Source: Mortierella sp. BCC40632
Lineage: Eukaryota; Mortierellomycota; Mortierellomycetes; Mortierellales; Mortierellaceae
Direction: 5' to 3'
Length of the DNA stretch: 64,000 bases
Assembly (NCBI GenBank): GCA_011634665.1
Contig: WAEK01000010.1
Span: forward strand, 1,329,001-1,393,000
This document shows positions 4,523-34,860 of this stretch, piece after piece (within the stretch, counting starts at the first letter, position 1; each line of letters opens with the position of its first letter). The notes beneath the pieces are model-generated. The model was not told the DNA's origin. It was given only the letters and a program-made list of their open reading frames with translations, and did no database searches. A program made the position numbers and the translations under genes.

Positions 4523-4554
<32 letters not shown>

Positions 4555-14624: not shown

Positions 14625-15494
14625 TATGATGTGAATGCGAAATAGGAATGAGAACTGTTGGTGGCAAGGAGACAGATGGCACGAGAATGAATGAACAAGA
14701 TGAGGCGGAATGAAAGTGAACAAACAAACAAACAAGCAGAAAAAAAGTCGGGGAAGAAGAAAAGAAAAAGAAGGAGAGAAGAGAGTCCCTGGGGGAACAC
14801 ACTCTGCTGAAGATGCAAAAAAAAAAAAATAGACACGCGGACTTGGGCTCTGCTGCCAGAACAAGAAACAGCAACCCAAAGGTCGGAAGAGGAATGCCAA
14901 ACACAAAGAACCTACTACAAAAGATACCTGTCAGCCGGATAGACAGGTGCGGACTAGACAGTAACGTGAGAGTGGAAGAAAGAGTAGGGAGCGAGGCGAT
15001 CGAATATGAGAGGAGAGAAATCGTCGCCAAGGCTGACGAACGCCTTTATACACGGAGCGGCCACTGCTCCGCCCTTCTCGTTCTACTGCCATTTGGGTTC
15101 CAGCAAGGAGGAGGGGGGAGGGGCGCTCGCGGAGGGAGGGGAGTGGATCACATCTCGGTTCCTAAGCCGAGCATAGCCAATGCCTATCTCGTTCTCCCAA
15201 ATGACCCAATACCCACTCTCCATCACCAGTGACCACCACTAAGAGAACCATTTGTCGCCACACACTCTTGAGCCACCTTGCTCGTCTGTAGTAGACACCA
15301 AGACCAGTAAGAACGGAGCAGGGATCTCTATTTTAAACAAGGGAAGGACCTGGCTGTGAAGCTAAGCTGCGACAGCCAGCAGATGGAAGAGACAGAAATG
15401 AGAGATGTGGCGCGCGAGGAGGTGAACCGAGGATAGGCAAACAAGACCGACTCATTGCTCAGTCCCGACGAAAAATCCTTGGAAGGAGTCGGCA

Positions 15495-15527
<33 letters not shown>

Positions 15528-15800
15528 CGCGCGCTAAACATCCAAAAACGCGTTTCAGAAGCCGCGATACACTTGTTTTCCGCTTTTTATTGAATCTAGC
15601 TTCTCTTGCTCTTTGCCAAGCTCTTCTTTACTTCATGTTTGGAACTACTTTTCACAGCTCGAACTACCTGTCGAGTAGCGAACTCCGACCAGATTCAACT
15701 GAAAGAGACAGAGAGAGAGAGAGAGGCAGCCAAAAAAAAAAAAAAAAAAAAAAAAAAAGGTGCTCTCATTCAGTAAGCCTCTTTCCGGCAATGACTAATT
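14625..15800. other. Intergenic region upstream of the hydrolase gene
   Basis: No convincing gene. It probably contains the 5' leader and promoter of the minus-strand hydrolase. Poly-A runs at 15494-15512 and 15731-15758 and a short GA tract near 15711 are the only notable features. An open frame at 15455-15835 is lysine-rich low complexity and is not called. Confidence 0.5.
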
Positions 15801-18430
15801 TCTCCCTTTCCGCTGAACGACACCTTTCAAGGTAAGAAAGACACCCGACAATGGTAAAATTACTCCGGAGTGTGCTCATCTTAACATCTATCGGATGCTA
15901 TCAACTATATTCACCATCTGTTTGGGACCACTCAACAGTAGTGCAGTGGGTTGAATGACTCCAGACAGAGTGCCTTTCGATTGGAGAGAAGAGGAGTCGC
16001 CCTGCGTTTTATCCACTCCGTGGCTAAAATTGTTTGTCTCTTTGAATTGTCGGATATCAACACTCTTCTTTCTCCCTCCCTCCCCTCCCATATTCGCAGA
16101 CCTCTTCCAATCCACACTTTTGTCTCTCTGGCTCCTTCTTGGATACTTATGGCCAATAGACCAATATGACAAGTAGATCTTTCACAGGCTCGTTTACGGA
16201 TTTTCCATCTTTGGTCTGGTGAACATCATGCTATACACTCAAGTTCATCCAGCCCCTTATTACTGTGACAGTATTGCGCCGTAAAGACCTCCCTTTCTTT
16301 CTTTCTTTCCCTCTTTGTCTTTTTCTCTCTTTCTCTCTTTTTCTCTTTCTTTTTGCTTGCGACCTTGGAGATTCTGGCAAATGGGCTCCCCTTCTCTTTC
16401 GCATAATTACAGGAATACAAAGTGACCGTTTAGGTCCTCTGGAGACGAGCCCTAGTGTGATCATTAGTCGGGCTACCATTGGCAGGAGAAGCAGTCATAG
16501 TGCAACCCCAAGCCTCTCCTCTTTGACCTGGGGAAGGAGAGCAAAGCCGCGTGGATGCAAGTGGTGTTAGGATAATTTGCCTGCGATATCCACTTGCTTG
16601 TACCTTGGTCCGAATTTATGCTCTAACTCTCACTGGGTGTCATATCTCGAAAGAATCTCTCCTTCTTGCACCCTCGCGTTCACAACTGCCTCTTCCTCTC
16701 ATTCAAAAGTACTACTCATGATCTCAACCACTAAACAATATTGAGGTCTTCTGGCTAACTTGGATTGGATCAAGGATACCTTGAATGATATTCGAAGAGG
16801 GAAGTATCCGTTCAAGAATGTCTCTCGACAATCCCCAACCATTGCTTCTGCCTATGCACCTCCTGTTGATCCAAAGTCTTCTTACCAGAGCCTAAAGTGG
16901 CATACGAATTGTACCCTCAAGGCTATTTTCTTTCTTTTTCTCTTTTCTTTTCTTTTCTTTCTGGCACGCCCATCTGTTTTCTGTTAATGAGGAGAACAAG
17001 CTGGACCAAACAACTGCACAAACATCTGTGCAACGAAGTGTAAAAAGCACATGCTCGCTTTGACTCGTTACGATTCATTCCGAGCTGGATAAGAGAAGGA
17101 CAAACCTGACTCCTCAACACTATTCTTGGCATAGACAAAAAGAGGAGGGCTCGAATGTCTTTTTGTGTATGCATTGAAAGATCTCAACATCCAGAAGTCG
17201 AAACAAAAAATCGGGTGTTTTGTCTAAATTTTTGGTTTACCTTGACTGAGGACTATCATGATACAGGAAAACAGAGTAGCTCTCCAGGTCTCAAGAAAGA
17301 GTGAAGAATGAGAGATTGAACACACAAGCACACAAACACACTCTCTCAGACACACATACACCACGGTGGCGTACATACTATGTTGAAAAAGAATAGTGAA
17401 CAAACAAACAACCAAACAACCAAACAACCAAACAAACACGCACACACAAAGAGTACTTTGGGATGCATATTGAGACAAGGACTTGGGATTAACAGAGAAA
17501 GGAATGGTTCTGGAAGGCGTCGACATACATCCCACATAAAAGATTCGCACTTGTGGAGAAGGAAGACAAAGGCTGTGGAGATTTAAAGGGGGTCGACTGG
17601 AAAGAATGAGGCTTCAGTCCCTACGCACCCATTCCACTATTTCTAAAAAAAAAAAAAAAAAAATAGACTGATTTGGCCATGAAAAAGTTGCGTTCAACTT
17701 CAAATATCAGATAAAACAATCTGCTACCCTGATTTATTCACTCCTCGAGTCAACTTGAGTGGATTTTATTTCTGAAATAAATCAAAACAGACTGACTTGG
17801 CCATGGAAGAGTCGCGTTCAACTTCAAATATCAGATAAAACAATCCGCTACCCTGATTTATTCACTCCTCGAGTCAACTTGAGTGGAGTTTATTTCTAGA
17901 TGCCTGTTATGAGTTTTGTTCTCTAGTCAGGGGATTTTTCAATAGCGAAAAGCCACTTGCCTGTAAAAATGATTGTGTTGACTGCCAAAGGTGGTGGATC
18001 ACCTCTTGGTGTCGTGTAAAAGAGAGCGAGCAAACTGTTAACACCTCACAACTGCTGAGGGTTATTCTTCTGCACGGTCCTGCAAGGGGTATGCGAATAT
18101 CGGTAGTATCATCTCTCCTCCGTCTCAGAAATTGTTGGTGAGCCTCATCAGGTCAGGTTGAGCGGTTGACACAAAGAGCTGCATGACCACGAGTTTTAGT
18201 CTAATCGAGTTCATCCCTCTGTTCATCCCCCACTGCCTATTCCCCAATCCTCTTCAGAGTTGCGACACCCTAGAATGTGGCTCCAGAGTTGAAGCACCTG
18301 AGAGTAGTCGTGCTAAAAAAAAGTAAAAAAATAAAAAAATAAAATAAAAACAAAAATCAGGACCCCACTATCTAAAAGTCTCATACACCCCTCCAAGAAA
18401 TAAGAGCAATGGCCTTTTCAATCCTAGAAC
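15801..18430. repeat. Spacer unit A of the ML-gene tandem array
   Basis: First copy of a long spacer repeated before ML genes 1-4. It opens with a block at about 15805-15990 that recurs near 19490, 22840 and 26095/26370. From about 16201 to 17200 it matches 19879 to 20890 almost base for base at a constant offset of 3,678. It then carries a CA/CAAA-rich stretch, a private 124-base duplication (17665-17905) and a segment (18050-18310) resembling a retrotransposon tail. No intact gene is seen. Confidence 0.75.
17665..17905. repeat. Two-copy direct repeat, period about 124 bases
   Basis: A segment starting AGACTGATTTGGCCATG at 17665 recurs at 17789 with a few substitutions. Each copy contains a Xho-like CTCGAG core flanked by CACTC/GAGTG arms that could fold into a hairpin. 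The repeat is absent at the matching place in spacer units B and C. Confidence 0.7.
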
Positions 18431-18620
18431 GCTCACCTGGCTTTCACAAGCCAAAAGAGAGAGTAAAAGATATGCAGAACACAAATAATAGCCAGGATGT
18501 GTGCAACATCAGGTACACTGTCAGCCTTAGACTCTGCGTTGACATGAATGGTTGACACTATCAATGCTCTCCGAGTTGAAGAGAGGATTGCCAAACACCA
18601 TCTTTGACAACGAGAAGTTG

Positions 18621-18628
18621 TATAAAAA
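18621..18628 (+). promoter_or_regulatory. TATA box of ML gene 1
   Basis: TATAAAAA lies 99 bases before the start codon, inside a promoter block (about 18490-18720) that is nearly the same in front of ML genes 2 and 3 and recognisable before gene 4. Confidence 0.65.
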
Positions 18629-18719
18629 GAGCTCGATTTTAAACCTGCGTCAGCCGTTGTTACCCTATCCTCTTTCAGCACATTCACTCCACTGCCTCTT
18701 CCACCTTCAATTTCTCACC

Positions 18720-19178
18720 ATGAAATTCATTGCCGCCTTGGCTGCCTTTGCCTTCGCCGCTGTTGCTATCGCTCAGCAGCCCACCTTTACTAACTGCGCT
18801 ACCGGCTACACCGACATGGATGTCACCGCATTTACAATCAACCCCTACCCCGTTTGCGTTGGAAAGCAGGTCTGCGCTGAGGCCACTGGTACCTTGAAGA
18901 ACGAAGTCATCGAAGGTGGCACGTTCTCGATCATCGGTCGCTACTTTGGCCTTGTCGTCTACACTGACGACTATGACCTCTGCACCTTGCTCGGCCAGCA
19001 GACCCCCCCTCTTCCCTGCCCCGTCCCCACCACCCAGAACTCGATCAAGGCCTGCTTCACCTACAAATCCGATGCCCCTACTGGTATCCCCGTCAAACTC
19101 ACATTCGAGGCCATCAACGGCAGTGGCGAGGTCCTCTTCTGCCAACAGGCCGCTGAAACCTTTGCCACCACTTGTTAA
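18720..19178 (+). CDS. Secreted ML-domain (NPC2-like) protein, array copy 1
   Basis: 152 residues, one exon. Residues 1-19 form a signal peptide (hydrophobic Ala/Phe core, cleavage expected before QQ). The rest is one ML domain, the fold of NPC2, MD-2 and fungal phosphatidylglycerol/phosphatidylinositol transfer proteins, which hold a lipid or sterol in a beta-sandwich. Supporting motifs are INPYPVCVGK, a GTLKN turn, GRYFGLVVYTDDYDLC, a CPVP motif and an EAINGSGEVLFC C-terminal strand. Eight cysteines sit at 26, 46, 52, 88, 100, 112, 141 and 152, enough for four disulphides. NGS near 133 is a possible N-glycosylation site. The ATG at 18720 directly begins the signal peptide; an in-frame upstream ATG would place the signal internally. 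The fold is convincing; the lipid ligand cannot be read from sequence. Confidence 0.85.
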   Translation: MKFIAALAAFAFAAVAIAQQPTFTNCATGYTDMDVTAFTINPYPVCVGKQVCAEATGTLKNEVIEGGTFSIIGRYFGLVVYTDDYDLCTLLGQQTPPLPCPVPTTQNSIKACFTYKSDAPTGIPVKLTFEAINGSGEVLFCQQAAETFATTC

Positions 19179-19489
19179 AGAGGTTCATCTCATGAAGAGG
19201 AGAAAAGGATGAGGGAGAGGGGAAGGAGGGGAAAACAGAAGTTTTGCTTCTCTCTTACTTCTTCTCTTCACGGCTTTTACAGTACAATAAAAAAAAAAGC
19301 GCGCGCATCCGACCTTGGAGTGTTCGGACTATCAAAGACACGCATGTGTGGATCAATGAGAATAGGAGAATGTCCATTTAAAAAAATGCTTGGCGGAAAT
19401 TAAAGATTATGTAGACCTCTAGTCAACTGTTTGTTCTCCTCTTCATTTTCCAACCGTCTCCTGGATATTCCAGCAGTGATTCACTTATC

Positions 19490-21653
19490 TCTTGCGCTGA
19501 ATGACACCTTTCAAGGTAAGAAAGACACCCAACAATGGGAAAACTACTCTGGGGTGTGCTCATCTTAACATCTATCGGATGCTATCAACTATTCTGTTTG
19601 GAACCACTCGGTAGTAGTGCAGTGGGTTGAGTGACTCCAGACAGAGTGCCTTTCGATTGGAGAGAGGAGGGACTGCTCTGCATTTTTTCCATTTCGCGGC
19701 TAAAATCGTTGGATATCTACATACACTCTTCCCCCCCTCCCCCCGCCTCCACGTTCACATATCCTTCTCAATCCATACCTTTGTCTCTCTGGCTCCATCT
19801 TGGATACTTATGGCCTGTAGACCCTTATGGCCTGTAGACCTTTATGGCCAGTAGATCTTTCGCAGGACCATTTATGAGATTTCCATCTTTGGTCTGGTGA
19901 ACATCATGCTATACACTCAAGTTCATCCAGCCCCTTATTACTGTGACAGTATTGCGCCGTAAAGACCTCCCTTTCTTTCTTTCTTTCCCTCTTTGTCTTT
20001 TTCTCTCTTTCTCTCTTTTTCTCTTTCTTTTTGCTTGCGACCTTGGAGATTCTGGCAAATGGGCTCCCCTTCTCTTTCGCATAATTACAGGAATACAAAG
20101 TGACCGTTTAGGTCCTCTGGAGACGAGCCCTAGTGTGATCATTAGTCGGGCTACCATTGGCAGGAGAAGCAGTCATAGTGCAACCCCAAGCCTCTCCTCT
20201 TTGACCTGGGGAAGGAGAGCAAAGCCGCGTGGATGCAAGTGGTGTTAGGATAATTTGCCTGCGATATCCACTTGCTTGTACCTTGGTCCGAATTTATGCT
20301 CTAACTCTCACTGGGTGTCATATCTTGAGAGAATCTCTTCTTCTTGTACCCTCGGGTTCACAACTGCCTCTTCCTCTCATTCAAAAGTACCACTCATGAT
20401 CTCAACCACTGAACTATATTGAGGTCTTCTGGCTAACTTGGATTGGGTCAAGGATACCTTGAATGATATTCGAAGAGGGAAGTATCCGTTCAAGAATGTC
20501 TCTCGACAATCCCCAACCATTGCTTCTGCCTATGCACCTCCTGTTGATCCAAAGTCTTCTTACCAGAGCCTAAAGTGGCATACGAATTGTACCCTCAAGG
20601 CTATTTTCTTTCTTTTTCTCTTTTCTTTTCTTTTCTTTCTGGCACGCCCATCTGTTTTCTGTTAATGAGGAGAACAAGCTGGACCAAACAACTGCACAAA
20701 CATCTGTGCAACGAAGTGTAAAAAGCACATGCTCGCTTTGACTCGTTACGATTCATTCCGAGCTGGATAAGAGAAGGACAAACCTGACTCCTCAACACTA
20801 TTCTTGGCATAGACAAAAAGAGGAGGGCTCGAATGCCTTTTTTTTGTATGCATTGAAAGATCTCAACATCCAGAAGTTGAAACAAAAAATCGGATGTTTT
20901 GTCTAAACCTTTGGTTTACCTTGACTGAGGATTATCAAGTAAGGCTTGAATAGGGGAAACAGAGTGGCTCTCCAAGTTTCAAGAAAGAGTGAAAGTGAGA
21001 GAGTGAACACACAGGCACACAGACACACTCAGACACATACGCATCCACCACGGTGGCGTACATACTATGTTGAAAAAGAATAGTGAACAAACAAACAAAC
21101 AAACAAATAAACAGACAGACAGACAGACAGACAGCCATACACAAAGAGCACTTTGGAATAGATTTGAGGCAAGGGATTGGGATCAACTGAGAAAGAGATG
21201 GTCCTGGAAGGCGTCGGGACGCATCTTACACAAAAGATACGCACTTGTGGAGAAGGAAGACAAAGGCTGTGGAGATTTGAAGCGGGTTAACTGGAAAGAA
21301 TGAACAAAAGAGATGATTTGACCCGCTTCGGTCCCTACACGCTCATTCCACAAAGAGAAAGGAGTGAGCAAACTGCTTTCTACACCTCACAACTGCTGAG
21401 GATTATTCTTCTGTACGATCCTGCAAGATGTATGCGAATGTCAGTAGTATCATCTCTCCTCCGTCTCAGAAATTGTTGGCGAGCCTCATCAGGTCAGGTT
21501 GAGCGGTTGACACAAAGAGCTGCATGACCACGAGTTTTAGTCTAATCGAGTTCATCCCCCTGACCATCTCCACTGCCTATGCTCCAATCCTCTTCAGGGT
21601 TGCAATGTCCTGGAATGTAGCTCCATGGTCGAAGCACCTAAGAGTAGTCATGC

Positions 21654-21703
<50 letters not shown>

Positions 21704-21850
21704 AAGTAAAATTTAAAAGTCAAGTAGAACCCATTATCAAGGAGTCTCCTACACCCCTCTAGCAAATAAAACAATCGTCTTTTCAGTTTTCGAACGCTTA
21801 TTTAACCTTCAATAGTCAAAAGAGAGAGTATAAGATATGCAGAGCACAAA
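19490..21850. repeat. Spacer unit B of the ML-gene tandem array
   Basis: Second spacer copy. Positions 19879-20890 are almost identical to unit A, while 21180-21660 are almost identical to unit C (24455-24930), so the unit is a mosaic. It includes CAAA and CAGA microsatellites (21085-21132), a retrotransposon-tail-like stretch (21390-21655) and a poly-A tract (21654-21698). No intact gene. Confidence 0.75.
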
Positions 21851-21985
21851 TAATGGCCAGGATGTGTGCAACATCAGGTACATTGTCAGCCTTGGACTCT
21901 GCATTGACTGGAATGGTTGACACTTTCAATGCTCTCCGAGTTGAAGAGAGGATTGCCAAACACCATCTTTGACAATGAGAATTTG

Positions 21986-21993
21986 TATAAAAA
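21986..21993 (+). promoter_or_regulatory. TATA box of ML gene 2
   Basis: TATAAAAA sits 99 bases before the ATG, the same spacing as gene 1, within the shared promoter block from about 21830. Confidence 0.65.
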
Positions 21994-22084
21994 GAGCCAG
22001 ATCATATGCATGCGTTAGCCATCGTCGCTCCATTCTCTTTCAACACATCCGCGCCACATCCTCCTCCACCTTCAATTTCTAGTC

Positions 22085-22543
22085 ATGAAGTTCATTCTCG
22101 CCTTGGCTACCTTTGCCTTCGCTGCTGTTGTCAACGCTCAGCAGCCCTCTTCGACCGACTGCGCCACAGGCTACACCGACATGGACGTTGAAAGCTTCGC
22201 AATCGTCCCTTACCCCATCTGTGCTGGAAAGATGTTCTGTATTGAGGCAGCTGGTGTCTTGAAGAACGAGATCATCGAGGGCGGTACGCTCTCCATCGTC
22301 GGTCGCTACTTCGGCCATGTCGTCTACAGTGACGATTATGACCTCTGCACCTTGTTCAGCCAGCAGACCCCCCCTCTCCCCTGCCCCGTCCCCACCACCC
22401 AGAGCGCGATCAAGGCCTGCTTCACCGCCAAGCCCGATATCCCCATCGGTATCCCCATCTTATTCACATTCGAGGCCATCAACGGCAGTGGCGAGGTCCT
22501 CTTCTGCCGAAAGGTCACCGATGCCTATGCCTACAATTGCTAA
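22085..22543 (+). CDS. Secreted ML-domain (NPC2-like) protein, array copy 2
   Basis: 152 residues, single exon, same layout as copy 1: 19-residue signal peptide, then one ML domain. All eight family cysteines are present, including the DLC and CPVP pair. It is the most divergent of the normal copies: the PYPICAGKMFCIEAAG segment, the FGHVVYSDDYDLC segment and an Ile-Pro-rich IPIGIPILF stretch all differ from copy 1. These positions line the expected lipid pocket and its mouth, so ligand preference may differ; that is inference. The spacer just upstream is nearly identical to its neighbours, so the coding changes stand out. The ATG follows a conserved leader. Confidence 0.85.
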   Translation: MKFILALATFAFAAVVNAQQPSSTDCATGYTDMDVESFAIVPYPICAGKMFCIEAAGVLKNEIIEGGTLSIVGRYFGHVVYSDDYDLCTLFSQQTPPLPCPVPTTQSAIKACFTAKPDIPIGIPILFTFEAINGSGEVLFCRKVTDAYAYNC

Positions 22544-22651
22544 AGTGATTCGTTTCAAGAAGAGGTGAAAAGAAGGAGAGGAGAAGGCGAGAGGGGAGTA
22601 TGGAAGATTTACTTTTCTCAGAATTATCCCTTTCGCATCTTTTTCGAGAAG

Positions 22652-22686
<35 letters not shown>

Positions 22687-22839
22687 ACGCGAGTATCCAA
22701 CCTCTAAAGAACAAGTACAAGAATCAATGAAAAAATAGGAAAATGTCGATTTAAAAGAAAATACAACCCTCGAGTCCATTGTTTGTCCTTCTCTCCATTT
22801 TCCAATCCGCATCCTAGACAATCCAACAATGATTAACTT

Positions 22840-24375
22840 CTCCCCTGTGCTGAGCATTGCCCTTAGAGGAACGAAAAGTACTCTGTACTCCTCCGGAATG
22901 CCCTTGTTAACGTCTATCGAATACTATCAACTACATTCACCATCTGTTTGGAACCACTCAGTAGTAGTGCAGTGGGCTGAATGACTCCAGATAGAGTACC
23001 TTTCGATTGGAGAGAGGAGGGACTGCTCTGCATTTTTTCAGTTTCGCGGCTAAAATTGTCGGATATCTACACTCTTCTCTCCCCCCCTCTCCATGTTCAC
23101 ATATCCTCCTTAATCCATACCTTTGTCTCTCTGCTTCCTTCCTGGGTGTTTATGTCTATAAACCTTTTCGGCCAGTAGATCTCTCACAGGACCATTTATG
23201 AGATTTTCATCTTTAGTCTGGTGAACATCATGCAATACACTCAAGTTCATCCAGTCCCTTATTACTGTGACAGTATTGCACCGTAGAGATTTCTCTCTCT
23301 CTCTTTCTTTTCTCCTTCTCTCTCCATCTTCCTTTTGGTTGTGACTATGAAGACTATGGTAAATGGAACCCCTTTTCTCTTTCTCTGACATTGTGCTTAA
23401 TTACAGAAATACAAAGTGACCGTTTAGGTCCTCTGGAGACGAGCCCTAGTGTGATCACTAGTCGGGCTACCATTGGCAGGAGAAGCAGTCATAGTGCAAC
23501 CCCAAGCCTCTCCTCTTTGACCTGGGGAAGGAGAGCAAAGCTGCGTGGATGCAGGTGGTGTTAGGATAATGTGCCTGCGATATCCACTTGCTTGTACCTT
23601 GGTTCGAATTTATGCTCTAACTCTCACTGGGTGTCATATCTCGAAAGAATCTCTCCTTCTTGCACCCTCGCGTTCACAACTGCCTCTTCCTCTCATTCAA
23701 AAGTACTACTCATGATCTCAACCACTAAACAATATTGAGGTCTTCTGGCTAACTTGGATTGGATCAAGGATACCTTGAATGGTATTCGAAGAGGGAAGTA
23801 TCCGTTCAAGAATGTCTCTCGACAATCCCCAACCATTGCTTCTGCCTATGCACCTCCTGTTGATCCAAAGTCTTCTTACCAGAGCCTAAAGAGGCATACG
23901 AATTGTACCCTCGAGGCTATTTTCTTTCTTTTTCTCTTTTCTTTTCTTTTCTTTCTGGCACGCCCATCTGTTTTCTGTTAATGAGGAGAACAAGCTGGAC
24001 CAAACAACTGCACAAACATCTGCGCAACGAAGTGTAAAAAGCACATGCTCGCTTTGACTCGTTACGATTCATTCCGAGCAGGATAAGAGAAGGACAAACC
24101 TGACTCCTCAACATAATTCTTGGCATTGACAAAAAGAGGAGGGCTTGAATGTCTTTTTTTTTGTATGCATTGAAAGATCTCAACATCCAGAAGTTGAAAC
24201 AAAAAATCGGATGTTTTGTCTAAACCTTTGGTGTACCTTGACTGGGGACTATTATGACACAGGAAAACAGAGTACCGTAGTTCTCCAGGTTTCAAGATAG
24301 AATGCGTGTGTGTGAACACACATACACAGATGGTGGCGAACATGCTCTGTTGAAAATAGAAAAGCGAACAAACAA

Positions 24376-24407
<32 letters not shown>

Positions 24408-24925
24408 CCATACACAAAGAGCACTTTGGAATAGATTTGAGGCAAGGGATTGGGATCAACTGAGAAAGAGATGGTCCTGGAAGGCGTCGGGACGCATCTT
24501 ACACAAAAGATACGCACTTGTGGAGAAGGAAGACAAAGGCTGTGGAGATTTGAAGCGGGTTAACTGGAAAGAATGAACAAAAGAGATGATTTGACCCGCT
24601 TCGGTCCCTACACGCTCATTCCACAAAGAGAAAGGAGTGAGCAAACTGCTTTCTACACCTCACAACTGCTGAGGATTATTCTTCTGTACGATCCTGCAAG
24701 ATGTATGCGAATGTCAGTAGTATCATCTCTCCTCCGTCTCAGAAATTGTTGGCGAGCCTCATCAGGTCAGGTTGAGCGGTTGACACAAAGAGCTGCATGA
24801 CCACGAGTTTTAGTCTAATCGAGTTCATCCCCTGACCATCTCCACTGCCTATGCTCCAATCCTCTTCAGGGTTGCAATGTCCTGGAATGTAGCTCCATGG
24901 TCGAAGCACCTAAGAGTAGTCATGC

Positions 24926-24975
<50 letters not shown>

Positions 24976-25060
24976 AATTTAAAAGTCAAGTAGAACCCAT
25001 TATCTAGGAGTCTCCTACTCCCCTGCCAACAATTAGAACAATGACCTTTTCAATCCTAGA
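22840..25060. repeat. Spacer unit C of the ML-gene tandem array
   Basis: Third spacer copy. Positions 23165-23560 match unit D (26560-26955), whereas 23620-24240 and 24455-24930 match unit B. A CAGA microsatellite (24382-24412) and a poly-A tract (24927-24970) occur at the same places as in unit B. No intact gene. Confidence 0.75.
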
Positions 25061-25252
25061 ACTCTTACCTGTCTTTCACGCGCCAAAAGAGAGAGTATAA
25101 GATATGCAGAACACAAATAATGGCCAGGATGTGTGCAACATCAGGTACACTGTCAGCCTTGGACTCTGCATTGACTGGAATGGTTGACACTTTCAATGCT
25201 CTCCGAGTTGAAGAGAGGATTGCCAAACACCATCTTTGACAACGAGAAGTTG

Positions 25253-25260
25253 TATAAAAA
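25253..25260 (+). promoter_or_regulatory. TATA box of ML gene 3
   Basis: TATAAAAA lies 99 bases before the ATG; the surrounding 200 bases are nearly the same as in gene 1. Confidence 0.65.
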
Positions 25261-25351
25261 GAGCTCGATTTTAAACCTGCGTCAGCCGTCGTTGCCCTAT
25301 CTTCCTTCAACACATCCACGCCACTGCCTCTTCCACCTTCAATTTCTCACC

Positions 25352-25810
25352 ATGAAATTCATTGCCGCCTTGGCTGCCTTTGCCTTCGCCGCTGTTGCTA
25401 ACGCTCAGCAGCCCGCATGGTCTAACTGTGCCGCGGTCTATGCTGACATGGACGTCACCGCCTTTTCAATCAGCCCCTACCCCGTTTGCGTCGGAAAGAA
25501 GGCCTGCATTGCGGCCACTGGTACCTTGAAGAACGAAATCATCGATGGTGGCACGTTCTCGGTCATTGGCCGCTACCTTGGCATTGTCGTCTACACTGAC
25601 GAATATGACCTCAGCAGCTTGCTCAGCCAGCAGGATCCTCCTCTTATTTGCCCTATCCCCATCACCCAGAATTCGATCCAGATCTGCTTCACCTACAAAC
25701 CCGATGCCCCTATCGGTATTCCCATCGAAATCGCATTCCAGGCCATCAACGGCAGTGGCGATGTCATCTTCTGCCAAAAGGCTACTGGTATCGTTGCCAA
25801 CCACTGCTAA
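25352..25810 (+). CDS. Secreted ML-domain protein, array copy 3, lacking one conserved cysteine
   Basis: 152 residues, single exon. The signal peptide is almost identical to copy 1, but the mature part has changed a lot. The conserved DLC motif reads DLS (residue 88 is Ser) while its likely partner in the CP motif (Cys100, here CPIP) remains, leaving seven cysteines and probably one unpaired. The Gly in the early CATGY motif has also changed (CAAVY). The frame is fully open, the promoter looks intact and the C-terminal NGSGDVIFC strand is kept, so this does not look like a simple pseudogene. It may be relaxed, newly specialised or able to dimerise through the free cysteine; these are inferences. 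Confidence 0.8.
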   Translation: MKFIAALAAFAFAAVANAQQPAWSNCAAVYADMDVTAFSISPYPVCVGKKACIAATGTLKNEIIDGGTFSVIGRYLGIVVYTDEYDLSSLLSQQDPPLICPIPITQNSIQICFTYKPDAPIGIPIEIAFQAINGSGDVIFCQKATGIVANHC

Positions 25811-26209
25811 AGAGATTCATTTCATGAGGAGGTGAACAGGAGGAGGAGGAGGAAGAATGGAGGGAGGGGAGTATGCAAGAGTTGCCTCCCTCATAATTCT
25901 CTTCTTTGCAGCTTATACAGTACAAAAAAAAAAAAAAAAGACGCGAGCATTTGACCTTGGAGTATGCGGACAACCAAAGGAATGCACATGTGGATCAACG
26001 AGAATAGGAGAATACCCGTTTAAGAAAAATCTTGACGTAAATTAAAGGATATGCAAACCCTTTAGCCTGTTGTTTGTCCTCCTCCATTTTCCAGCAGTGA
26101 TTAACTTCTCTATTGAACTGACCTTTGCTCTTCGAGGCACGAAGAATTGCCAGTATAGGCAGCCCCATTTGGAATGCTCTTTTGAACAACTATTATATGC
26201 CATCAACTA

Positions 26210-26352
26210 TTCTCCATTTCAGATGTTTTTGACCTCAGATTGCGCTGCTTATTTGAAGATTAACACCCCCCTTCGCAGTAACCCCGTGCAACGGACCGTG
26301 CATAATCCTCGAAAATAAGAATGGAAAAAACAAAAACAGATGAAATGGAGAA
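26210..26352. mobile_element. MITE-like element with 22-bp terminal inverted repeats and TA flanks
   Basis: The left end reads TTCTCCATTTCAGATG followed by TTTTTG; the reverse complement of the right end (26331-26352) matches it with two differences in 22. TA dinucleotides flank both ends (26208-26209, 26353-26354). Spacers A, B and C lack the element at the same point. Length 143 bases, no coding capacity. TA flanks and short TIRs fit a non-autonomous Tc1/mariner-type element. Confidence 0.75.
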
Positions 26353-27538
26353 TAGACTCACCATCTGTTTGGGATTACTCCGTAATAGTAGTGCAGTGGG
26401 TTGAACGACTCCAGACAGAGTGCCTTTCGATTGGAGAGAGGAGGGGCTACTCTGCGTTTTATCCATTTCACGGTTAAAATTATTCATCTCTTTGAATTGT
26501 CGGATATCTACACTTTCTTTCTGTATTCTTCTTGGGTATTTATGTTTTTAAATATTTTCGGCCAGTAGATCTTTCACAGGACCATTTATGAGATTTTCAT
26601 CTTTAGTCTGGTGAACATCATGCAATACACTCAAGTTCATCCAGTCCCTTATTACTGTGACAGTATTGCACCGTAGAGATTTCTCTCTCTCTCTTTCTTT
26701 TCTCCTTCTCTCTCCATCTTCCTTTTGGTTGTGACTATGAAGACTATGGTAAATGGAACCCCTTTTCTCTTTCTCTGACATTGTGCTTAATTACAGAAAT
26801 ACAAAGTGACGGTTTAGGTCCTCTGGAGACGAGCCCTAGTGTGATCATTAGTCGGGCTACCATTGGCAGGAGAAGCAGTCATAGTGCAACCCCAAGCCTC
26901 TCCTCTTTGACCTGGGGAAGGAGAGCAAAGCCGCGTGGATGCAAGTGGTGTTAGGATAATGTGCATGCGATATCCACTTGCTTGTGCCTTGGTCCGATAT
27001 CTCGAGAGAATCCCTCGTTCTTGCATTCTCGGAGTCACAACTGCCTCTTCCTCTCATTCGAAAGTACCACTCATGATCTCAACTGCTAAACTACACTGAG
27101 ATATTCTGACCAGCTTGGATTATATCAGGGGTACCTTTCGATGATTCCCAATTATCGCCTCCGCCAATGCACCTCCAGTTGATCTAAAATCTTCTTTTCA
27201 GAGCCTGGAGAGGCATGCGAATTGAACCCTTGCAACTTTTTGACACACCCATCAGTGGAGAGAACAACTTGGACCAAGCAACTGCGTAGGCATATGCTCT
27301 GCAATGTGTAAAGTCTATGCGTTCATCTTGACTCGTTCCGATGCACGTCGGGCCGGATGAAAGGACAAACCTGACTATTCAATGTTCCAAGTAAAAAAAA
27401 TAAAAAGGCTGGATTGAAGAATCTCATCAATCAGATGTCGAGAAGAAGATCAGGTGCTTTAGTCTATCTTGACTATAAGCTATCAAGTAAACCTAGGATA
27501 AAAGAAAGCAGGGCGCCTCCCCAAGTCGAGAGACAGAG

Positions 27539-27573
<35 letters not shown>

Positions 27574-28002
27574 TTGTGAATGTCCCCAAAGCGGCGTACA
27601 TGCTCTGTGGAAAACAATGTATACAAAGTGCACTTTAGGATGGATATTGAGCCAAGGACCTGGGGACAACAGAAAAAAGAATAGTGATGTAGACGTCGGC
27701 GCAAACCCCACACAAAAGATACGCACTTGTGGAGAAGTTTGTTATGCTCTGAGAGAGATTGAGGATGAGATGAGACGATTTGACCCGCCTCGGCCATATC
27801 CGCCCATTCCATAAGGAGAAGAAGAGGAGCAAACATTTTTTTTAAGACCTCGTTCCTAATGGTGTGAGATGTATAACTGGGCAAGTGCATTCTAAGGCTG
27901 CTCTGCACGGTCCTGCAGGGGTGTGTGTGAGCCGTTAGTGGTCTTCTCTCTCCTCCGCTTTAGAACCCCATCAAGACAGGTTGGGCGGCAAGTACAAAGA
28001 GT

Positions 28003-28164
28003 TGCATGACCACGAGTATCGAACGAATCCCTTCTGTCCATCGTCCCTCCCCCACCCGCCTTCTTCCCAGAGCCGCAACATTCTGGAATGCATTTCCAGA
28101 AGAGTCCGAGCACCCGAAGACAGCTTTATGCCAAAAAAGTCGTCAAGAAGAACCTGTCATCTAG
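28003..28164 (+). pseudogene. Possible remnant of a non-LTR retrotransposon reverse transcriptase C-terminus
   Basis: This frame reads 53 residues to a stop and contains RLLPRAATFWNAFPEE, which resembles the RxxxxWNxLPxE motif near the end of many LINE-type reverse transcriptases. Homologous DNA in units A, B and C (near 18180, 21500 and 24790) has in-frame stops. No catalytic reverse transcriptase motif was found nearby, so this is a tail fragment at best. Assignment rests on one motif remembered from the family. Confidence 0.3.
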
Positions 28165-28407
28165 GAGCCCCTTTCACTCCTTCCAGCAAATAAGACATTG
28201 ATCTTTTCGACCACCAAGCGCTTACCTAGCTTTCGCGAGCCGAAAGATCGAGTAAAAGACAGACAGGACAAAGGAATGTCCAGGATGTGTGCAACATCAA
28301 GCGCATTGTCAGTCTTGGTCTCTGCATTGACAGGGCGGGCCGACATTGTCCATGCTCTCCGAGTCGAAGAGAAGGATGTCAACCCCACCTTTAATGATGA
28401 AAAATGG

Positions 28408-28415
28408 TATAAAAA
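28408..28415 (+). promoter_or_regulatory. TATA box of ML gene 4
   Basis: TATAAAAA, 101 bases before the ATG. The promoter block from about 28280 is recognisable but more diverged than in genes 1-3. Confidence 0.6.
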
Positions 28416-28508
28416 GAGCTCGATCATAAACCTGTACCAGTCATTCATCGCCTCCATCTTCTTTCAACACATCCACTCCATCGCCTCCTTCACTTTCAAT
28501 CTCTAGCC

Positions 28509-28976
28509 ATGAAGCTCATTGCCGCCTTTGCCGCCTTTGCCCTTGCCGCTCTCTCCAGCGCCCAGCCAACGCTTCCCCCAATTGTCAACTGTGCCACGGG
28601 CTACACCGACATTGATATTACCACCTTCACCATCTCCCCCTACCCTCTCTGCGTTGGAAAGCAGGTCTGCGCTGAGGGTACTGGTGTCTTGAAGAACGAG
28701 GTCATCGAGGGTGGTACGCTCTCCATCGTCGGTCGCTACTTCGGTCTTGTCGTCTACACTGATGACTATGACCTCTGTGACTTGCTTAGCAAGCAGGACC
28801 CTCCCCTTCTCTGCCCTGTCTCCACCGATCACACCTCACTCAAGGCCTGCATTATGGTCAAGCCTGATGCCCCCACCGGTATCCCCGTCGAGCTCACCGT
28901 CGAGGCCATCAACGGCAGTGGTGAGGTCCTTTTCTGCCAGAGGGCCCTTGGTGCTGTTGCCGCCGTCTGCCCCTAG
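28509..28976 (+). CDS. Secreted ML-domain (NPC2-like) protein, array copy 4
   Basis: 155 residues, single exon. Signal peptide of about 18 residues, then an ML domain with a slightly longer N-terminal loop (a Pro-rich insertion before the first cysteine) and all eight cysteines; the last is followed by one extra Pro. The DYDLCDLLSKQDPP region and the DHTSLKACIMVKPDAP segment distinguish it from copies 1-3. Large parts (SPYPLCVGKQVCAEG, IPVELTVEAINGSGEVLFC) are shared with copy 5, so copies 4 and 5 form one subgroup and 1-3 another. Confidence 0.85.
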   Translation: MKLIAAFAAFALAALSSAQPTLPPIVNCATGYTDIDITTFTISPYPLCVGKQVCAEGTGVLKNEVIEGGTLSIVGRYFGLVVYTDDYDLCDLLSKQDPPLLCPVSTDHTSLKACIMVKPDAPTGIPVELTVEAINGSGEVLFCQRALGAVAAVCP

Positions 28977-29254
28977 AAAAAAAAAAAAAGGATTCGTTTT
29001 CATGAAGGGGTGGAGAAGTGGAAAAAAAGGAACAGGAGGAGCGAGAGAGAGAGAGAGAAAGAGGGACAATTTGACAGATCTCTCGCACCTCTTTCCTTCA
29101 CCCCTATAAGACGCGCGCGCATCCGACCTAGGTGTGTGCAGATAATCAAAGGGACACTACGCGTGAATCCTTGAGAATAGGAGGAAATTTGAATGTCAAT
29201 AAAAATAAAAAACAAAAAAAAAGTCCTAGGGACTCTTCTTTCCTCTTTCTTTTC

Positions 29255-29290
<36 letters not shown>

Positions 29291-30123
29291 ATCTTGGCGT
29301 GAAAAAAAAAGTGCATGTGCAAACCAATGGTTCATTGCTTACGTTCCCATTTTCCGTTCAAAAAAAAAGAAGAGAAGAAGGAGGGGGAGAGGAGGAGTGT
29401 TCCTTTTTGACCCCCCGCCCAAAGGAACAAGTCTTGGGAGAAATGACACAAGGTTCAGTTCACACTTCTTGCACTCAATACTGCTGTGATCCCCACCTTT
29501 TCCTTTTATTTCTCTTCTGAAAACAATCAGAGACGGCGAAGAAGAAGAAGAAGAAGAAGAAAAAGCCCGTGATGACACAGGGTCGTGTCAATAAACACCG
29601 CCTATCCATTGCGATGAGCGAATAACAATGAGGGGAAAAAAAATGTAAAGAAAAGAAAAGGTGGAGGACAAGTGAGTGGATGAGGAGTGAGATAGTAAGC
29701 GAGAGAAAAAAGAAGGAAGCAGTGGAATAGAAAAATGTAAAGTCAAGAAGAGAGTTGACCTTGTGATTCCCTGGGCAGGAAGCGAGGTACAAAGTTTAGA
29801 AACCGCATCAGAGCCGATAACTTTTCAGAAGGAAGAAGGGAGACGAAGAGGAAGATGATTGCCCTCTCTCTCTATCTATCTCTATCCTTCGCTCTCTTTC
29901 ACTTTCTCTTTCTCTTTTCCCCCTAGTGCACTTCTGTCTCATTCCGTGGTGCAAATAACCCGAAAGTGTACTTAAAAAAAAAAAATAAAATAAAAAAAAC
30001 TACAGTCGCTGTATTAAACCACCGAGGCATGAAAGAGCGGAATGGGCGGAAGGAACTTTGTACCAACGCGTAATGCCACCAAAAAGGAGCCCTGCCTTCT
30101 TTTTTCACCGCTCATGCTGCTGC
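28977..30123. other. Intergenic region, no gene recognised
   Basis: A-rich and GA-rich low complexity including poly-A at 29258-29286 and a GAA run near 29540. Open frames here translate into homopolymer artefacts. Nothing supportable on either strand. Confidence 0.5.
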
Positions 30124-31406
30124 TCAGACAAAACATGACGAAAGGCTCAAAAGGTACAACAGTAGACCTGTGGCAAGCGTAACGACCACAATGGGCTTAC
30201 TAAAGTAGAATGATGACTCCTCTTCCTTCTGCACTTTAGGGGTGGGGGTAGGGGTGAGAGAAGAAGAAGGAGCAGGAATTGGGGTCAGTGAACACGGGAC
30301 GTCTAGACAAGGATACCGCCTGGAAAGACAAGCAATAGCGAAGACAAGAAAAATAGGGTAGGTGAATCAGAATGTTGTGGAGGAATAGGATACAAAAATG
30401 TAATACAGTTTACCTGGGCATGCGATGTGGAGAGGAAACTCTGTCTGGGCAGAAAGGAGGAGCCTAAGATAGAGCCTGGCCAGAGGGAACAACAAAGAAA
30501 GGATGGAGGGGGGGGAGGGAGGGAAACAGCAAACAATTTACCCGCTCATGCTCCAACTTGCCCGTGGCTCTCCAATGCATTTCGTTGGTACGGAATGAGA
30601 GGGGGACCCAAACTTTGTGTCAACTGGGACGCGTCCGAGGAACTCCCTTCGTTTGACTGCCGAGCCACACACTCTCTCTCCATCCACCTGTCCTTCCCTT
30701 TGAGCAACATTAAACGCATACCTCTGAATACGCAAAATGCATTCGTGCACAAACAAACTGACTGACGGGATAAGAGGCACAGAGTCAAGACGGGGACAAA
30801 AGGTAGACAAGGTTGACAGGCGTAGAGTGTGCTCTGTAGACATTGGCAACACACAGAGTGGATATCCAAGATGTGTGGCATCGAGTAATGTGCGCGGAAG
30901 CATGTCAACAAATCGAGTCAGCCCATTTTCAGACATCAGCCATTGTGGTGTCGCCTATTCCTCGAACTTGGCCTTGACATTGTTGTTTTGTTATTGATTT
31001 TTGTCTGCATAGAAGCTGGGTGCAGGGACGAATCCCTCTGGATCCAAAGAGTTGTTTTCTCCCATTGTTCTGTAGGCCTGCTACTAGTGTCCCCATGCTT
31101 TGTCCTCAACTCAGACCAGTTTCAGGACTCAAACAGGCATGGGTCCTAGTCAGCTCACTCAGCTCGTTCATTTAGAGCAGAGCAGACGCTTTTCATTGGT
31201 CAATTAGGTTCGTCGATCCAAAGATTTTTGCCCGAGTCGTTTAATTCAACGAGTGTGGGGGAAGGATGGAAGTGGCATCTTGATGCAACAAAACAACTAC
31301 TAAGGCGATATACTTACCCGAACAAGAAATATCCCGTCCCCAGAACCATAGCGGAGAGTGTAGCATGCTCTCCTCCTAACTTCCTTGAAAACTCTAATAG
31401 AAACAT
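30124..31406 (-). CDS. Tentative multi-exon gene for a small membrane protein
   Basis: Several exon-like pieces on the minus strand, order uncertain. A first piece (31406..31318) starts with ATG, encodes FSRKLGGEHATLSAMVLGTG and ends at a good donor. Middle pieces with fitting splice signals lie near 30770-30725, 30662-30542 and 30475-30414. The last piece (30302..30124) encodes a Thr/Pro linker and a C-terminal hydrophobic helix (KPIVVVTLATGLLLYLL) before a stop. They may belong to one gene or to two: the first piece loosely recalls a small F-type ATP synthase subunit, the last a tail-anchored or GPI-type end. Phases can be closed in more than one way, so no single model is offered. Confidence 0.25.
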
Positions 31407-32743
31407 GAGGACGAAGGCAACAAGAACAAACAGCCGCAGTCAGGTCAGCGGAGAACAGAGGGGGAAGAGAGAGAGAGAGAGAGAGAGAGAAGCCAGCAGA
31501 AAAAGGCGAACGTTTGTGGAGCGCACACAAACAATTCGAACGGAAACAAGATTACTAACCCGTATTATAGGCATGCACGCCATGACCCCTCTAATTCCTT
31601 CTCTTACCCATAGTCTTGCCCCCTCCCCCTTGTGCTCTGTAATATTCTCTACTCGCACTCTCTCAGTGCGCGAGGTTAATCTGGGTCATTCTCCCTAGAA
31701 TCTCTTTGATTCATTTTTGCTTGGAGCTGCCGAGTTCAGGGGTGGTAGGAGGACAAAGAATGAAAATGGTCAAGTGTCCTACAAGTCATGACAGCAAAAC
31801 CGCCAAAATCAACATCGAGATGACCCTTTCCTTACCCCATCTTGCGCCTGGATCCAGAAAAAAGGAAGAGAGAATGATCTAGAACGTTGGAACTCCACTA
31901 TTCTCCTTGGGAGGTAGCCTTTGAAGGTCTGACTTGTCGGCTGTGTTGTATCACAGGCAAAGGCCCGCGTCTCCTTTCCTTTTTTTTTTTTTTTTTTTTC
32001 TTCTGCTGACACCTTCACATCTGTTCATTATTGCCTTTGGACTGCTGACACAACCACAACAGTCCATTGCAAGAATGATGGATTCGCAAGTGCAAGAGAA
32101 AATACTCCGTGTATGGTACTCTGTAAAGTGGGCAAGATGTATTGACCTTTGGAATCCTTAGCATCCCAACCCTTACTCACGGGTGTTTTTGATCGGGGTC
32201 ACCCCATTCAATCCTTTATTTTTTTTTGGTGGCACAGCAATAGTAAGAGGAGAATGAATACCCAGGTCGTGGTAGTGTGTCGAAAAAGCCCTTTTCCAGG
32301 TTGTGGGTCGCGCGCCTCAAGAACAGATTATGTTCCTGCTCCCTCTTGTTGGTGGGAGAGGTGAAAGAGGCGACAGAGAGAAGTCGAATGCAGCGCCGAA
32401 GTTACGTTGTACGATGTTTGTTGTTTGCTGTGACTTGGGCTACTTCTCACAGCGATGCACTAAGAGCCCGGGATGTGTTTTCTCGATTCTTTTTTCAAGG
32501 GCTAACTTTGTGACCATTCCTCTTCTCCCTGCCCACGGTCAGCCCAACTTTTTTCAACCTTTTGATTTTTAGAGTACACACACAACATATCATGCAGATC
32601 GAGAGAGGACCAAGGATCGATGCATGTCTCGGGAACAAAAGGAAACACAAGTAGAGTATTACATACAGTATTGAACACGGCCAACGTTTCGCTACAGTTT
32701 AGACACAAAGCAAAAGAGTTTTCTACTCTCTTTCTCTCTCTCC
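31407..32743. other. Intergenic region, no gene recognised
   Basis: Contains a GA microsatellite (31469-31490), a poly-T run (31981-31999) and no exon with a recognisable product. An open plus-strand frame at 31228-31698 shows no family features. Confidence 0.45.
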
Positions 32744-32979
32744 TCAACTGACCCAATCCTTTAATGCAGAATACAGAGGCACAACTGCAATCACAGCAGC
32801 GAGCACAACAGCACGCACGATGGACAAGTATACTTGCAAGCAGCACAAACTTCTGTTCCATGTGAATGCATTGAGCCAAGAACTAGTTAGACGCCTCTCC
32901 CTTCAGACGATTGGGCTCTAGATCGTTCCTTTCTCTGCTTACCTTCTCCACCGCCTGCGCGGCGATGGATTCTCGCCAT
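32744..32979 (-). CDS. Possible 41-residue single-pass membrane protein
   Basis: Two exons, 32979..32943 and 32832..32744, join in phase across a GT-AG intron of 110 bases. The product has a short basic N-terminus (RIHRRAGGGE) and one strongly hydrophobic helix (VRAVVLAAVIAVVPLY), ending KDWVS. Such layouts occur in tiny mitochondrial or ER membrane proteins, but I do not recognise the family. It faces away from ML gene 5, with about 215 bases between the two starts, so they may share a promoter region. The case rests on splice signals, phase and composition only. Confidence 0.4.
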
Positions 32980-33083
32980 GAAGATTAGTGCAACGTACAG
33001 GAATGCTCTTGAGGAGAAGGGTAGACTAACATGAAGAGTTTCGCCAACTGTTGTCATCGGTTAAAAGGTAGGCTTCTTTCCAG

Positions 33084-33090
33084 TATAAAA
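33084..33090 (+). promoter_or_regulatory. TATA box of ML gene 5
   Basis: TATAAAA lies 112 bases before the ATG. The flanks do not resemble the promoter block of genes 1-4, so this copy probably has its own control. Confidence 0.55.
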
Positions 33091-33195
33091 ACCAGGCATC
33101 CCTTCGCTCAATTTTTTAATCCGCACTCGCACTCAACTCTCCAGCTCCTCATCAAGCCTTCGCCGCTCTTCCACCTCAAGCTTACCATCGCAAAC

Positions 33196-33651
33196 ATGAA
33201 GTTCTTCGCCGCCGTCGCTTCCCTTGCTCTTGCCGCTGTTGTCAGCGCTCAGCAGCCCACCTTCACCAACTGCGCTACGGGCTACACTGACATCGACATC
33301 ACCGCCTTCACCATCAGCCCCTACCCTCTTTGCGTTGGAAAGCAGGTCTGCGCTGAGGGTACTGGTACCTTGAAGAACGAGGTCATCGAGGGTGGTACGC
33401 TCTCCATCGTCGGTCGCTACTTCGGTCTTGTCGTCTACACTGACGACTATGACCTCTGCACCTTGCTCGGCCAGCAGACCCCCCCTCTCCCCTGCCCCGT
33501 CCCCACCACCCAGAACTCGATCAAGGCCTGCATCACCGTCAAGCCCGATGCCCCCACCGGTATCCCCGTCGAGCTCACCGTCGAGGCCATCAACGGCAGC
33601 GGCGAGGTCCTCTTCTGCCAGAAGGCCACCGTCACCGCCGAAAACTGCTAA
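33196..33651 (+). CDS. Secreted ML-domain (NPC2-like) protein, array copy 5
   Basis: 151 residues, single exon: 19-residue signal peptide and a complete ML domain with all eight cysteines. The mature sequence looks like a mixture: TFTNCATGYTD and LLGQQTPPLPCPVPTTQNS agree with copy 1, whereas the SPYPLCVGKQVCAEG and IPVELTVEAINGSG segments agree with copy 4. It lies 4.2 kb beyond copy 4, lacks the repeated spacer and has a different promoter. Its codons are strongly C-ending, suggesting high expression. It may be the conserved founder of the cluster, or a product of conversion between copies; that is inference. As in the others, the ATG begins the signal peptide. Confidence 0.87.
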   Translation: MKFFAAVASLALAAVVSAQQPTFTNCATGYTDIDITAFTISPYPLCVGKQVCAEGTGTLKNEVIEGGTLSIVGRYFGLVVYTDDYDLCTLLGQQTPPLPCPVPTTQNSIKACITVKPDAPTGIPVELTVEAINGSGEVLFCQKATVTAENC

Positions 33652-34860
33652 GCAGTTTACCTCTTTTTGGTCTCTCATTCTGGGAATCCAGACTGTTAGT
33701 CCCAAAAAGACTCTATTGAGGTTTTCCCTTTTTGGCCAGACCTTAATGTTGGCTTGACTTTGAATCGCTCGCCAACCAACCCTAGTGCTGAGCACTATAG
33801 CAAAAGAAAAAAATCCAATTAAAAACCGATTTACTCTACATGTCATTGAAAAGGATTGTTGCTTCTGGACTGTCTAAACTACCCGAAATATTGATAGGAG
33901 AAGAGAAGGAAGGGGAGAGGGAAATTTTTATGAAGTTGCATTAAAAAAAAGGGAGTGGGATTGGTGGGTAAAAGTCTGTGCACCCCTATTTTGCCTCGGT
34001 AATCCACTGTCGTACAGAATGAATTTTTCTCTCCTGTCGGTGCATTGGAATTTACGTTTTGGTGAAGGGGAGGGGATTGGAACATTGTTCTGCCGTAGTC
34101 TAGAGGCTTTAGGGCACGCCGCTGGAATTGCTCAAAAAGGTACCAACGCCGCTGCTCTAGGAAGGTAAGCATTATTGGCGACTCTAGCCGCTTCTGCCAT
34201 ACAGTCTACCCTCCGAGTCAAAACATCAACCGTTTCCACTTGGGCTTGACAGTGTGCAAAGGATATGGACGTCTTACAAAACTATAACGTCGTAACTCTA
34301 TTTTTTTTTCCCTTTTTTTCTAACCTGCTTCTGCTTCTGATCCTGTTCTTCTTTTCTATCACATCTTATGCCTCTCAACCTCTGCATGACTTTGTGGCCT
34401 CGACTTTTTTTTTTTTTTTTTTTGTTACCTAATTTCTCCACTGGCTGCCTGCTCGAATAGTCAACTCCTCCCAGTCTCACTATGAATTACAGTATATATA
34501 CACCAATTTAATTCATCAAAGAAAGCCAAATGAGCATTGAATAAAAACCATGGTTTGATGAAAATAAAAATAAAATTACATCCTGGGTATGTTGACTAAG
34601 TCTGTCTTACGGAGGTCTGGGCTGGCCATGTCTCGATCCTGATGAGGGGCTGTGGTCTAGTTGCTTTTGTGAGAAAAGAATCAGAGGATAGAGGAGGGCT
34701 GTGGCTGGAAGGAAGTGAAGAGAAAGGGGGGAGGAGAGGAGAATTCAAGTCGTCTACAGGGCTCAACCAGAAGCATTCATCCAACATGAGGACTTGTGTG
34801 AAGTCCCTAGTCAATAAAGAATGACTATCTACAGAACCTCACACTTCTCTCCACTCTAGC
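33652..34860. other. Intergenic region, no gene recognised
   Basis: No frame with recognisable features. Poly-T at 34405-34423 and a simple GA-rich stretch near 34690-34740. Confidence 0.45.

What the first reader, a model, noticed from the sequence alone, without database searches (positions are those of the whole stretch)
15800..33651. Tandem array of five secreted ML-domain genes with repeated spacers
Five intact single-exon genes (18720, 22085, 25352, 28509, 33196) lie head to tail on the plus strand. Each encodes a signal peptide and one ML domain. Copies 1-4 are preceded by related 2-3 kb spacers, so the duplicated unit is gene plus long spacer. Such clusters can produce a set of secreted lipid binders with different ligands, for nutrient sterol capture or contact with a host or partner.
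Basis: partly seen in the sequence, partly recalled or inferred. Interest (0 to 1): 0.75.

Follow-up and report, generated by a model that had tools for sequence, protein, structure and literature searches.

The report
Fungal cluster of secreted lipid-carrier genes
A Mortierella-type fungus carries a run of tandemly copied genes for small, apparently secreted proteins with the predicted fold of the cholesterol carrier NPC2; the copies are real, have the codon use of highly expressed genes and differ in sequence, but which lipids they carry is not known.

The parts
18720..19178 (+). ML gene 1 (152 aa, intronless)
   Evidence: PF02221 39.3 bits; EF-1alpha codon index 0.541
22085..22543 (+). ML gene 2 (152 aa, intronless), long branch
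   Evidence: PF02221 32.6 bits; branch 0.40; dN/dS 0.58 for branches g2+g3 against 0.18
25352..25810 (+). ML gene 3 (152 aa, intronless), long branch; the only one of 124 aligned rows without Cys88
   Evidence: PF02221 39.4 bits; branch 0.41
28509..28976 (+). ML gene 4 (155 aa, intronless)
   Evidence: PF02221 41.2 bits; codon index 0.594
33196..33651 (+). ML gene 5 (151 aa, intronless), short branch, highest codon index of the five
   Evidence: PF02221 41.6 bits; codon index 0.704; AF2 model mean pLDDT 88.6
15783..18719 (+). Spacer of unit 1, homologous to spacers of units 2-4
19468..22084 (+). Spacer of unit 2
22886..25351 (+). Spacer of unit 3
26311..28508 (+). Spacer of unit 4 (most diverged)
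16202..17157 (.). Near-identical tract shared with 19880-20835 (956 sites, 9 differences)
21111..21738 (.). Identical tract shared with 24384-25004 (621 compared sites, 0 differences)
23184..23541 (.). Near-identical tract shared with 26574-26931 (358 sites, 2 differences)
18487..18719 (+). Proximal promoter region of gene 1, with TATAAAAAGAGC about 100 bp before the ATG; homologous stretches lie before genes 2-4
   Evidence: (families D10, D12, D18); the TATA reading is by eye

Best explanation
This is a lineage-specific tandem family of secreted, disulfide-rich, NPC2/ML-fold lipid carriers in a Mortierellaceae fungus. Shown here by computation: five window genes and a sixth copy form one clade; a unit of gene plus spacer was copied in tandem; units have exchanged sequence by gene conversion; the predicted fold is NPC2-like. 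Inferred: the proteins are made in quantity, are exported, and each carries one lipid (sterol, phospholipid or fatty acid) in the ML pocket between membrane, wall and surroundings. Genes 5 and 6 keep the ancestral job; genes 2 and 3 are shifting in a few residues, probably in ligand or partner choice.
Against: No expression, localisation or binding data. Signal peptides are read by eye. dN/dS is below 1 in 15 of 15 pairs, so much of the divergence may be relaxed constraint. Of five branch groupings tried, g1+g2+g3 fits as well as g2+g3 (14.2), while g4 alone (1.8) and g5+g6 (0.2) show nothing. Recombination can inflate M2a, and the three sites also vary in the wider family. Conversion tracts miss the genes no more than chance allows (product 0.129 over three neighbour pairs). 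Over the whole spacer, spacers are significantly more alike than genes in 2 of 6 unit pairs; in units 1/4 the reverse holds (p 0.022). The neighbouring pairs g1/g2, g2/g3 and g3/g4 show no significant shared run in the coding sequence, and that test ignores uneven constraint along the gene.
Confidence: 0.62

Rival explanations
1. Dosage array: the copies exist to raise output of one carrier, and their differences are drift under relaxed constraint, blurred by gene conversion.
For: Codon use leaning to EF-1alpha in all six copies; dN/dS below 1 in 15 of 15 pairs; conversion among units; tract positions compatible with random placement.
Against: Codon models prefer a diversifying class on all three topologies and in both halves; genes 2 and 3 keep a codon index (0.52, 0.45) above the four other window ORFs while their proteins change faster.
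Confidence: 0.23
2. Partner-facing set: the proteins bind lipids of another organism (plant, bacterium, animal) to take them up, mask them or signal.
For: Intronless, copied in tandem and with a diversifying class, like the cnidarian non-canonical NPC2s tied to sterol transfer in symbiosis (abstract start, passages of PMC6548501); an ML protein is an effector candidate in Rhizophagus clarus (passage of PMC4746824).
Against: No symbiosis or host-contact data here; relatives are spread over many Mortierellaceae genera, which are largely soil saprotrophs (recalled).
Confidence: 0.12
3. Assembly artefact: one gene and spacer multiplied or mixed in the assembly.
For: Tracts of perfect or near-perfect identity between units; reads are not available.
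Against: Genes are 73-84% identical between units 1-4, spacers carry their own indels, and there is no N in the window.
Confidence: 0.03

Closest known systems
NPC2 (bovine 1nep, human 5kwy, yeast 6r4m/6r4n), PF02221
   Different: 16-20% identity; eight conserved cysteines against six in mammalian NPC2 (recalled); multicopy, beside a gene on C8 that looks by eye like ordinary fungal NPC2/PG-PITP.
Cnidarian non-canonical NPC2 (PMC6548501; passages read)
   Different: There symbiosis is supported by expression, imaging and lipidomics, and intron absence is ascribed to retrotransposition. Here neither is known, and the direction of the intron change is not settled.
Expanded NPC2-like genes of Clonorchis sinensis (PMC6979364, passages) and butterflies (PMC11942102, search listing only)
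   Same: Lineage-specific expansion of NPC2-like/ML proteins.
   Different: Animals; I did not compare gene arrangement.
ML effector candidate SCR_343180 of Rhizophagus clarus (PMC4746824) and extracellular ML protein 155263 of Mucor circinelloides (PMC3762813); passages read
   Same: ML proteins predicted (R. clarus) or found among extracellular proteins (Mucor) in related fungi.
   Different: Single proteins; no array in the passages seen.

Membership tests
ML-domain proteins (PF02221) | Profile score above the curated cut-off | tested here: met
   5 of 5 window proteins, 32.6-41.6 bits against 22.7
ML-domain proteins (PF02221) | Beta sandwich of the NPC2/GM2A/MD-2 type | tested here: met
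   Predicted only, gene 5 only: mean pLDDT 88.6; top Foldseek and VIA matches are NPC2, with Der f/p 2, MD-1 and GM2A further down
ML-domain proteins (PF02221) | N-terminal signal peptide | tested here: inconclusive
   Read by eye in 5 of 5; no predictor run
NPC2 / fungal PG-PI transfer protein | Orthology to the housekeeping NPC2 | tested here: inconclusive
   A separate NPC2/PG-PITP-like gene lies on C8 (by eye); no tree with NPC2 proteins was built. The family profile finds yeast NPC2 at E 2.6e-5
NPC2 / fungal PG-PI transfer protein | Binds sterol or phospholipid in the pocket | not testable with these tools
NPC2 / fungal PG-PI transfer protein | Three-disulfide pattern of mammalian NPC2 (recalled) | tested here: inconclusive
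   Eight cysteines present in 119-124 of 124 rows each; Cys52 and Cys112 are lost together in 5 rows and never singly, which suggests an extra bond
Processed (retroposed) gene origin | Precise loss of introns present in relatives | tested here: inconclusive
   Two introns modelled in 2 of 3 C1 copies and 2 of 3 C22 copies; none in the six C10 copies. Direction unsure: single-frame metagenome relatives P0058 and P0105 hint at intronless members elsewhere, while P0012 looks as if it runs into an unspliced intron at the first site

The most novel reading that the evidence does not exclude
A fungus has independently evolved the arrangement seen in symbiotic corals: a high-output, intronless, tandem, diversifying set of secreted NPC2-like carriers, each copy tuned to a different sterol or other lipid exchanged with partners or soil, with gene conversion remixing the units while selection keeps a few pocket or rim residues different.
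Probability: 0.18. Interest if true: 0.65.

Novelty: new member of a known kind. Interest (0 to 1): 0.42.

Why it matters
NPC2-like proteins are expanded in several animals, in corals in connection with sterol trade. A matching expansion in Mortierellaceae, fungi reported to make cholesterol-pathway sterols instead of ergosterol (passages of PMC10629195), did not turn up in my literature searches (listings, of which one search showed 12 of 493). Six close copies with graded divergence make a ready test set for how an ML pocket changes ligand, and the units are a readable example of gene conversion between neighbouring spacers whose genes stay different.

Tried and rejected
Spacers as mobile elements or hidden genes: no support. 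The spacer of unit 1 (16140-18700, the stretch searched) occurs in this genome at the array, apart from a 378-bp piece shared with C9 and six matches of 34-69 bp on other contigs (that search skips simple repeats and very common words). Rfam at gathering threshold finds only a tRNA in the window. (ATG-started ORFs of 120 aa or more) shows no ORF at one homologous place in all four spacers; shorter ORFs were not compared.

'Conversion spares the genes because of selection' (the peak-of-divergence signature in PMC3924837, passages read): considered and not claimed. Random placement gives no overlap with probability 0.129 over the three neighbour pairs, and identity outside the tracts is close to that of the genes in two of three pairs (0.837/0.815, 0.719/0.730); in units 2/3 the gene is lower (0.845/0.767).

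Codon index: the first attempt used wrong frames of the EF-1alpha loci and was redone; the reference frames run from stop to stop, so they hold a few codons before the ATG. In one search the row for the C1:3.03 Mb gene is out of frame and is not used.

Codon models: one topology had not converged in the first fit; refitted from two starts each. One search used one start per model. Biopython's YN00 failed for 5 of 10 pairs, so NG86 is quoted.

Gene models: for the third C1 copy (L027) my donor pattern (GTA or GTG) gave no sensible second intron. The middle C22 copy and the C16, C8 and C1:3.03 Mb genes were not modelled. Three proteins were left out of the 124-row alignment and tree (P0012, P0013, P0115; short or partial): 118 of 121 were used. 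Only 120 of 171 database hits were listed, so 51 were not seen, and only the 7994 candidates sharing most words were scored. VIA-align looks only at chains that Foldseek ranked highly; families not listed there are not excluded. Papers PMC8979924, PMC1855332 and PMC4859500 came up in searches and were seen as listings only.

Full report
What is there. The window is C10:1329001-1393000 of a 49.9 Mb, 62-contig genome. Every protein with a species name among the 13 hits and the 120 listed carries a genus name of Mortierellaceae (genus list); four entries have no species name (P0012, P0058, P0061, P0105). The best hit, P0001, is 66% identical, so the species itself is not identified.

The unit. 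Self-comparison shows four homologous units beginning near 15783, 19468, 22886 and 26311, each a long spacer followed by a gene; gene 5 resembles the others in its coding sequence. A genome search with gene 5 gives 15 matches. Together with the profile search they make 15 loci: six on C10 (five in the window, one at 1408356-1408808 minus), three on C1 near 3.33 Mb, three on C22 near 0.63 Mb, and one each at C1 3.03 Mb, C16 and C8. Both searches give lower bounds. Gene 6 is 95% identical to gene 5 over about 476 bp, ending just past the coding sequence on both sides.

Introns. The six C10 copies are uninterrupted. Two of three C1 copies and two of three C22 copies are best modelled with two short GT-AG introns at matching places; the third C1 copy shows the first of these. 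The middle C22 copy appears interrupted in frame and was only described. Whether C10 lost introns, perhaps through a processed copy, or the others gained them is open: one metagenome relative (P0012) seems to run into an intron at the first site, two others (P0058, P0105) are full-length single frames.

Gene conversion. Neighbouring spacers contain long near-identical tracts: units 1/2, 956 sites with 9 differences; units 2/3, 621 with none plus three shorter tracts; units 3/4, 358 with 2. The genes of those pairs are 81.5, 76.7 and 73.0% identical. In columns 501-750 (unit 1 from 16261) units 1 and 2 agree against 3 and 4 at 38 of 38 two-against-two columns; further on units 2 and 3 mostly agree against 1 and 4; promoter and gene mostly pair 1 with 3. 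The order of patterns is far from random: 43 runs against 106.3, 0 of 5000 shuffles as low. In the coding sequences, long shared runs are significant at 0.05 in 9 of 15 pairs, uncorrected, the strongest g1/g3 (0.0005), g2/g6 (0.0005) and g2/g5 (0.001); the neighbours g1/g2, g2/g3 and g3/g4 are not (0.076, 0.78, 0.36). Against a stronger claim: taken whole, spacers are significantly more alike than genes in only 2 of 6 unit pairs and less alike in one; the tracts miss the genes no more than chance allows (0.129).

Protein evolution. The six copies form one clade (SH-aLRT 100) among 127 rows, with g1, g2 and g3 together (97); g2 and g3 have branches of 0.40 and 0.41, g4 0.28, g1 0.07, g6 0.05 and g5 0.02 (quick method). 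Own dN/dS for g2 and g3 gives 0.58 against 0.18, 2dlnL 13.4, one degree of freedom. Of the other four groupings, g1+g2+g3 gives 14.2, g2+g3+g4 6.9, g4 1.8 and g5+g6 0.2. M2a beats M1a by 14.3, by 12.6 and 10.2 on the other topologies, and by 8.1 and 6.4 in the two halves. The sites are alignment positions 25, 52 and 152 (gene 5 residues 23, 50 and 149), each within three residues of a conserved cysteine. These positions vary in the wider family too; residue 23 is F in 72 and W in 25 of 124 rows. Recombination remains a caveat, and no pair of 15 has dN/dS above 1.

Expression proxy. Against two EF-1alpha genes of this genome the codon index is 0.54, 0.52, 0.45, 0.59, 0.70 and 0.74 for g1-g6; four other window ORFs give 0.17, 0.20, 0.33 and 0.20, and four first exons of C1 and C22 paralogs 0.27-0.38. 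This suggests high expression, strongest for g5 and g6; it does not show it.

Structure. The AF2 model of gene 5 (124-row alignment) has mean pLDDT 88.6 and pTM 0.79, low mainly in the first 20 residues. Its best solved relatives are NPC2 proteins, among them yeast NPC2 with ergosterol bound; then mite group 2 allergens, MD-1 and GM2 activator. Eight cysteines are present in 119-124 of 124 rows each. Cys52 and Cys112 are missing together in five rows and never singly, which suggests they bond; gene 3 is the only row lacking Cys88. A glycosylation-type N-G-S at residue 133 is in all six copies; such a sequon is there in 11 of 124 rows in all. One gene with an NPC1-type N-terminal domain was found, on C2.

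The family elsewhere. The six copies here branch apart from all 118 database proteins in the tree.

How it most likely works. Each protein is probably exported, folds into a disulfide-rich ML sandwich and shuttles one lipid outside the plasma membrane (inferred). Tandem copying with a promoter raised output (inferred); conversion has exchanged sequence between units (shown); genes 2 and 3 drift or are pushed toward other ligands or partners (inferred from the codon models). The ligand is unknown. Mortierellomycotina are reported to lack ergosterol, and M. alpina to have desmosterol as its main sterol (passages of PMC10629195), so desmosterol, phospholipids and long-chain fatty acids are the first to test. 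The closest precedent in arrangement is the cnidarian non-canonical NPC2 set, intronless and richer in positively selected residues (passages of PMC6548501).

Verdict. Literature searches naming Mortierella or Linnemannia with ML, MD-2-related, PI transfer, NPC2 or lipid-binding terms listed 0, 2, 2, 0 and 1 papers; none is, by title and the passages opened (PMC3762813, PMC10629195), about this family. Most subscription journals are missing from that library.

Noticed in passing
G000:C10:1408356-1408808 (L025:5356-5808, minus): Sixth ML copy, 95% identical to gene 5 over the coding sequence, in opposite orientation about 46 kb away.
   Followed up: yes
L028 (G000:C22:629500-639400): Another ML cluster: two closely similar intron-bearing copies about 5 kb apart and a middle copy that appears frame-interrupted.
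   Followed up: partly
window 17652-18029: 378-bp piece seen in unit 1 but not in units 2-4, holding a tandem pair of 123 bp, 88% identical to C9:1296031-1296407; possibly a small mobile element.
   Followed up: partly
window 13048-14930 (minus): Apolipoprotein N-acyltransferase-like frames (LNT_N and CN_hydrolase domains above cut-off) in a fungal genome.
   Followed up: no
window 38639-39721 (plus): Open frame with a DDE_3 transposase domain just above cut-off (28.7 against 28.6 bits).
   Followed up: no
window 438-5952 (plus): NUP159/214 beta-propeller match followed by a 1224-aa frame with FG-type repeats, probably one nucleoporin gene.
   Followed up: no
window 33133-33846 (minus): 237-aa open frame antisense to gene 5, most likely a shadow of its biased codons.
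   Followed up: no
alignment A2, gene 5 residues 52 and 112: Two cysteines lost together in 5 of 124 rows and never singly: a probable extra disulfide of this ML subfamily.
   Followed up: partly
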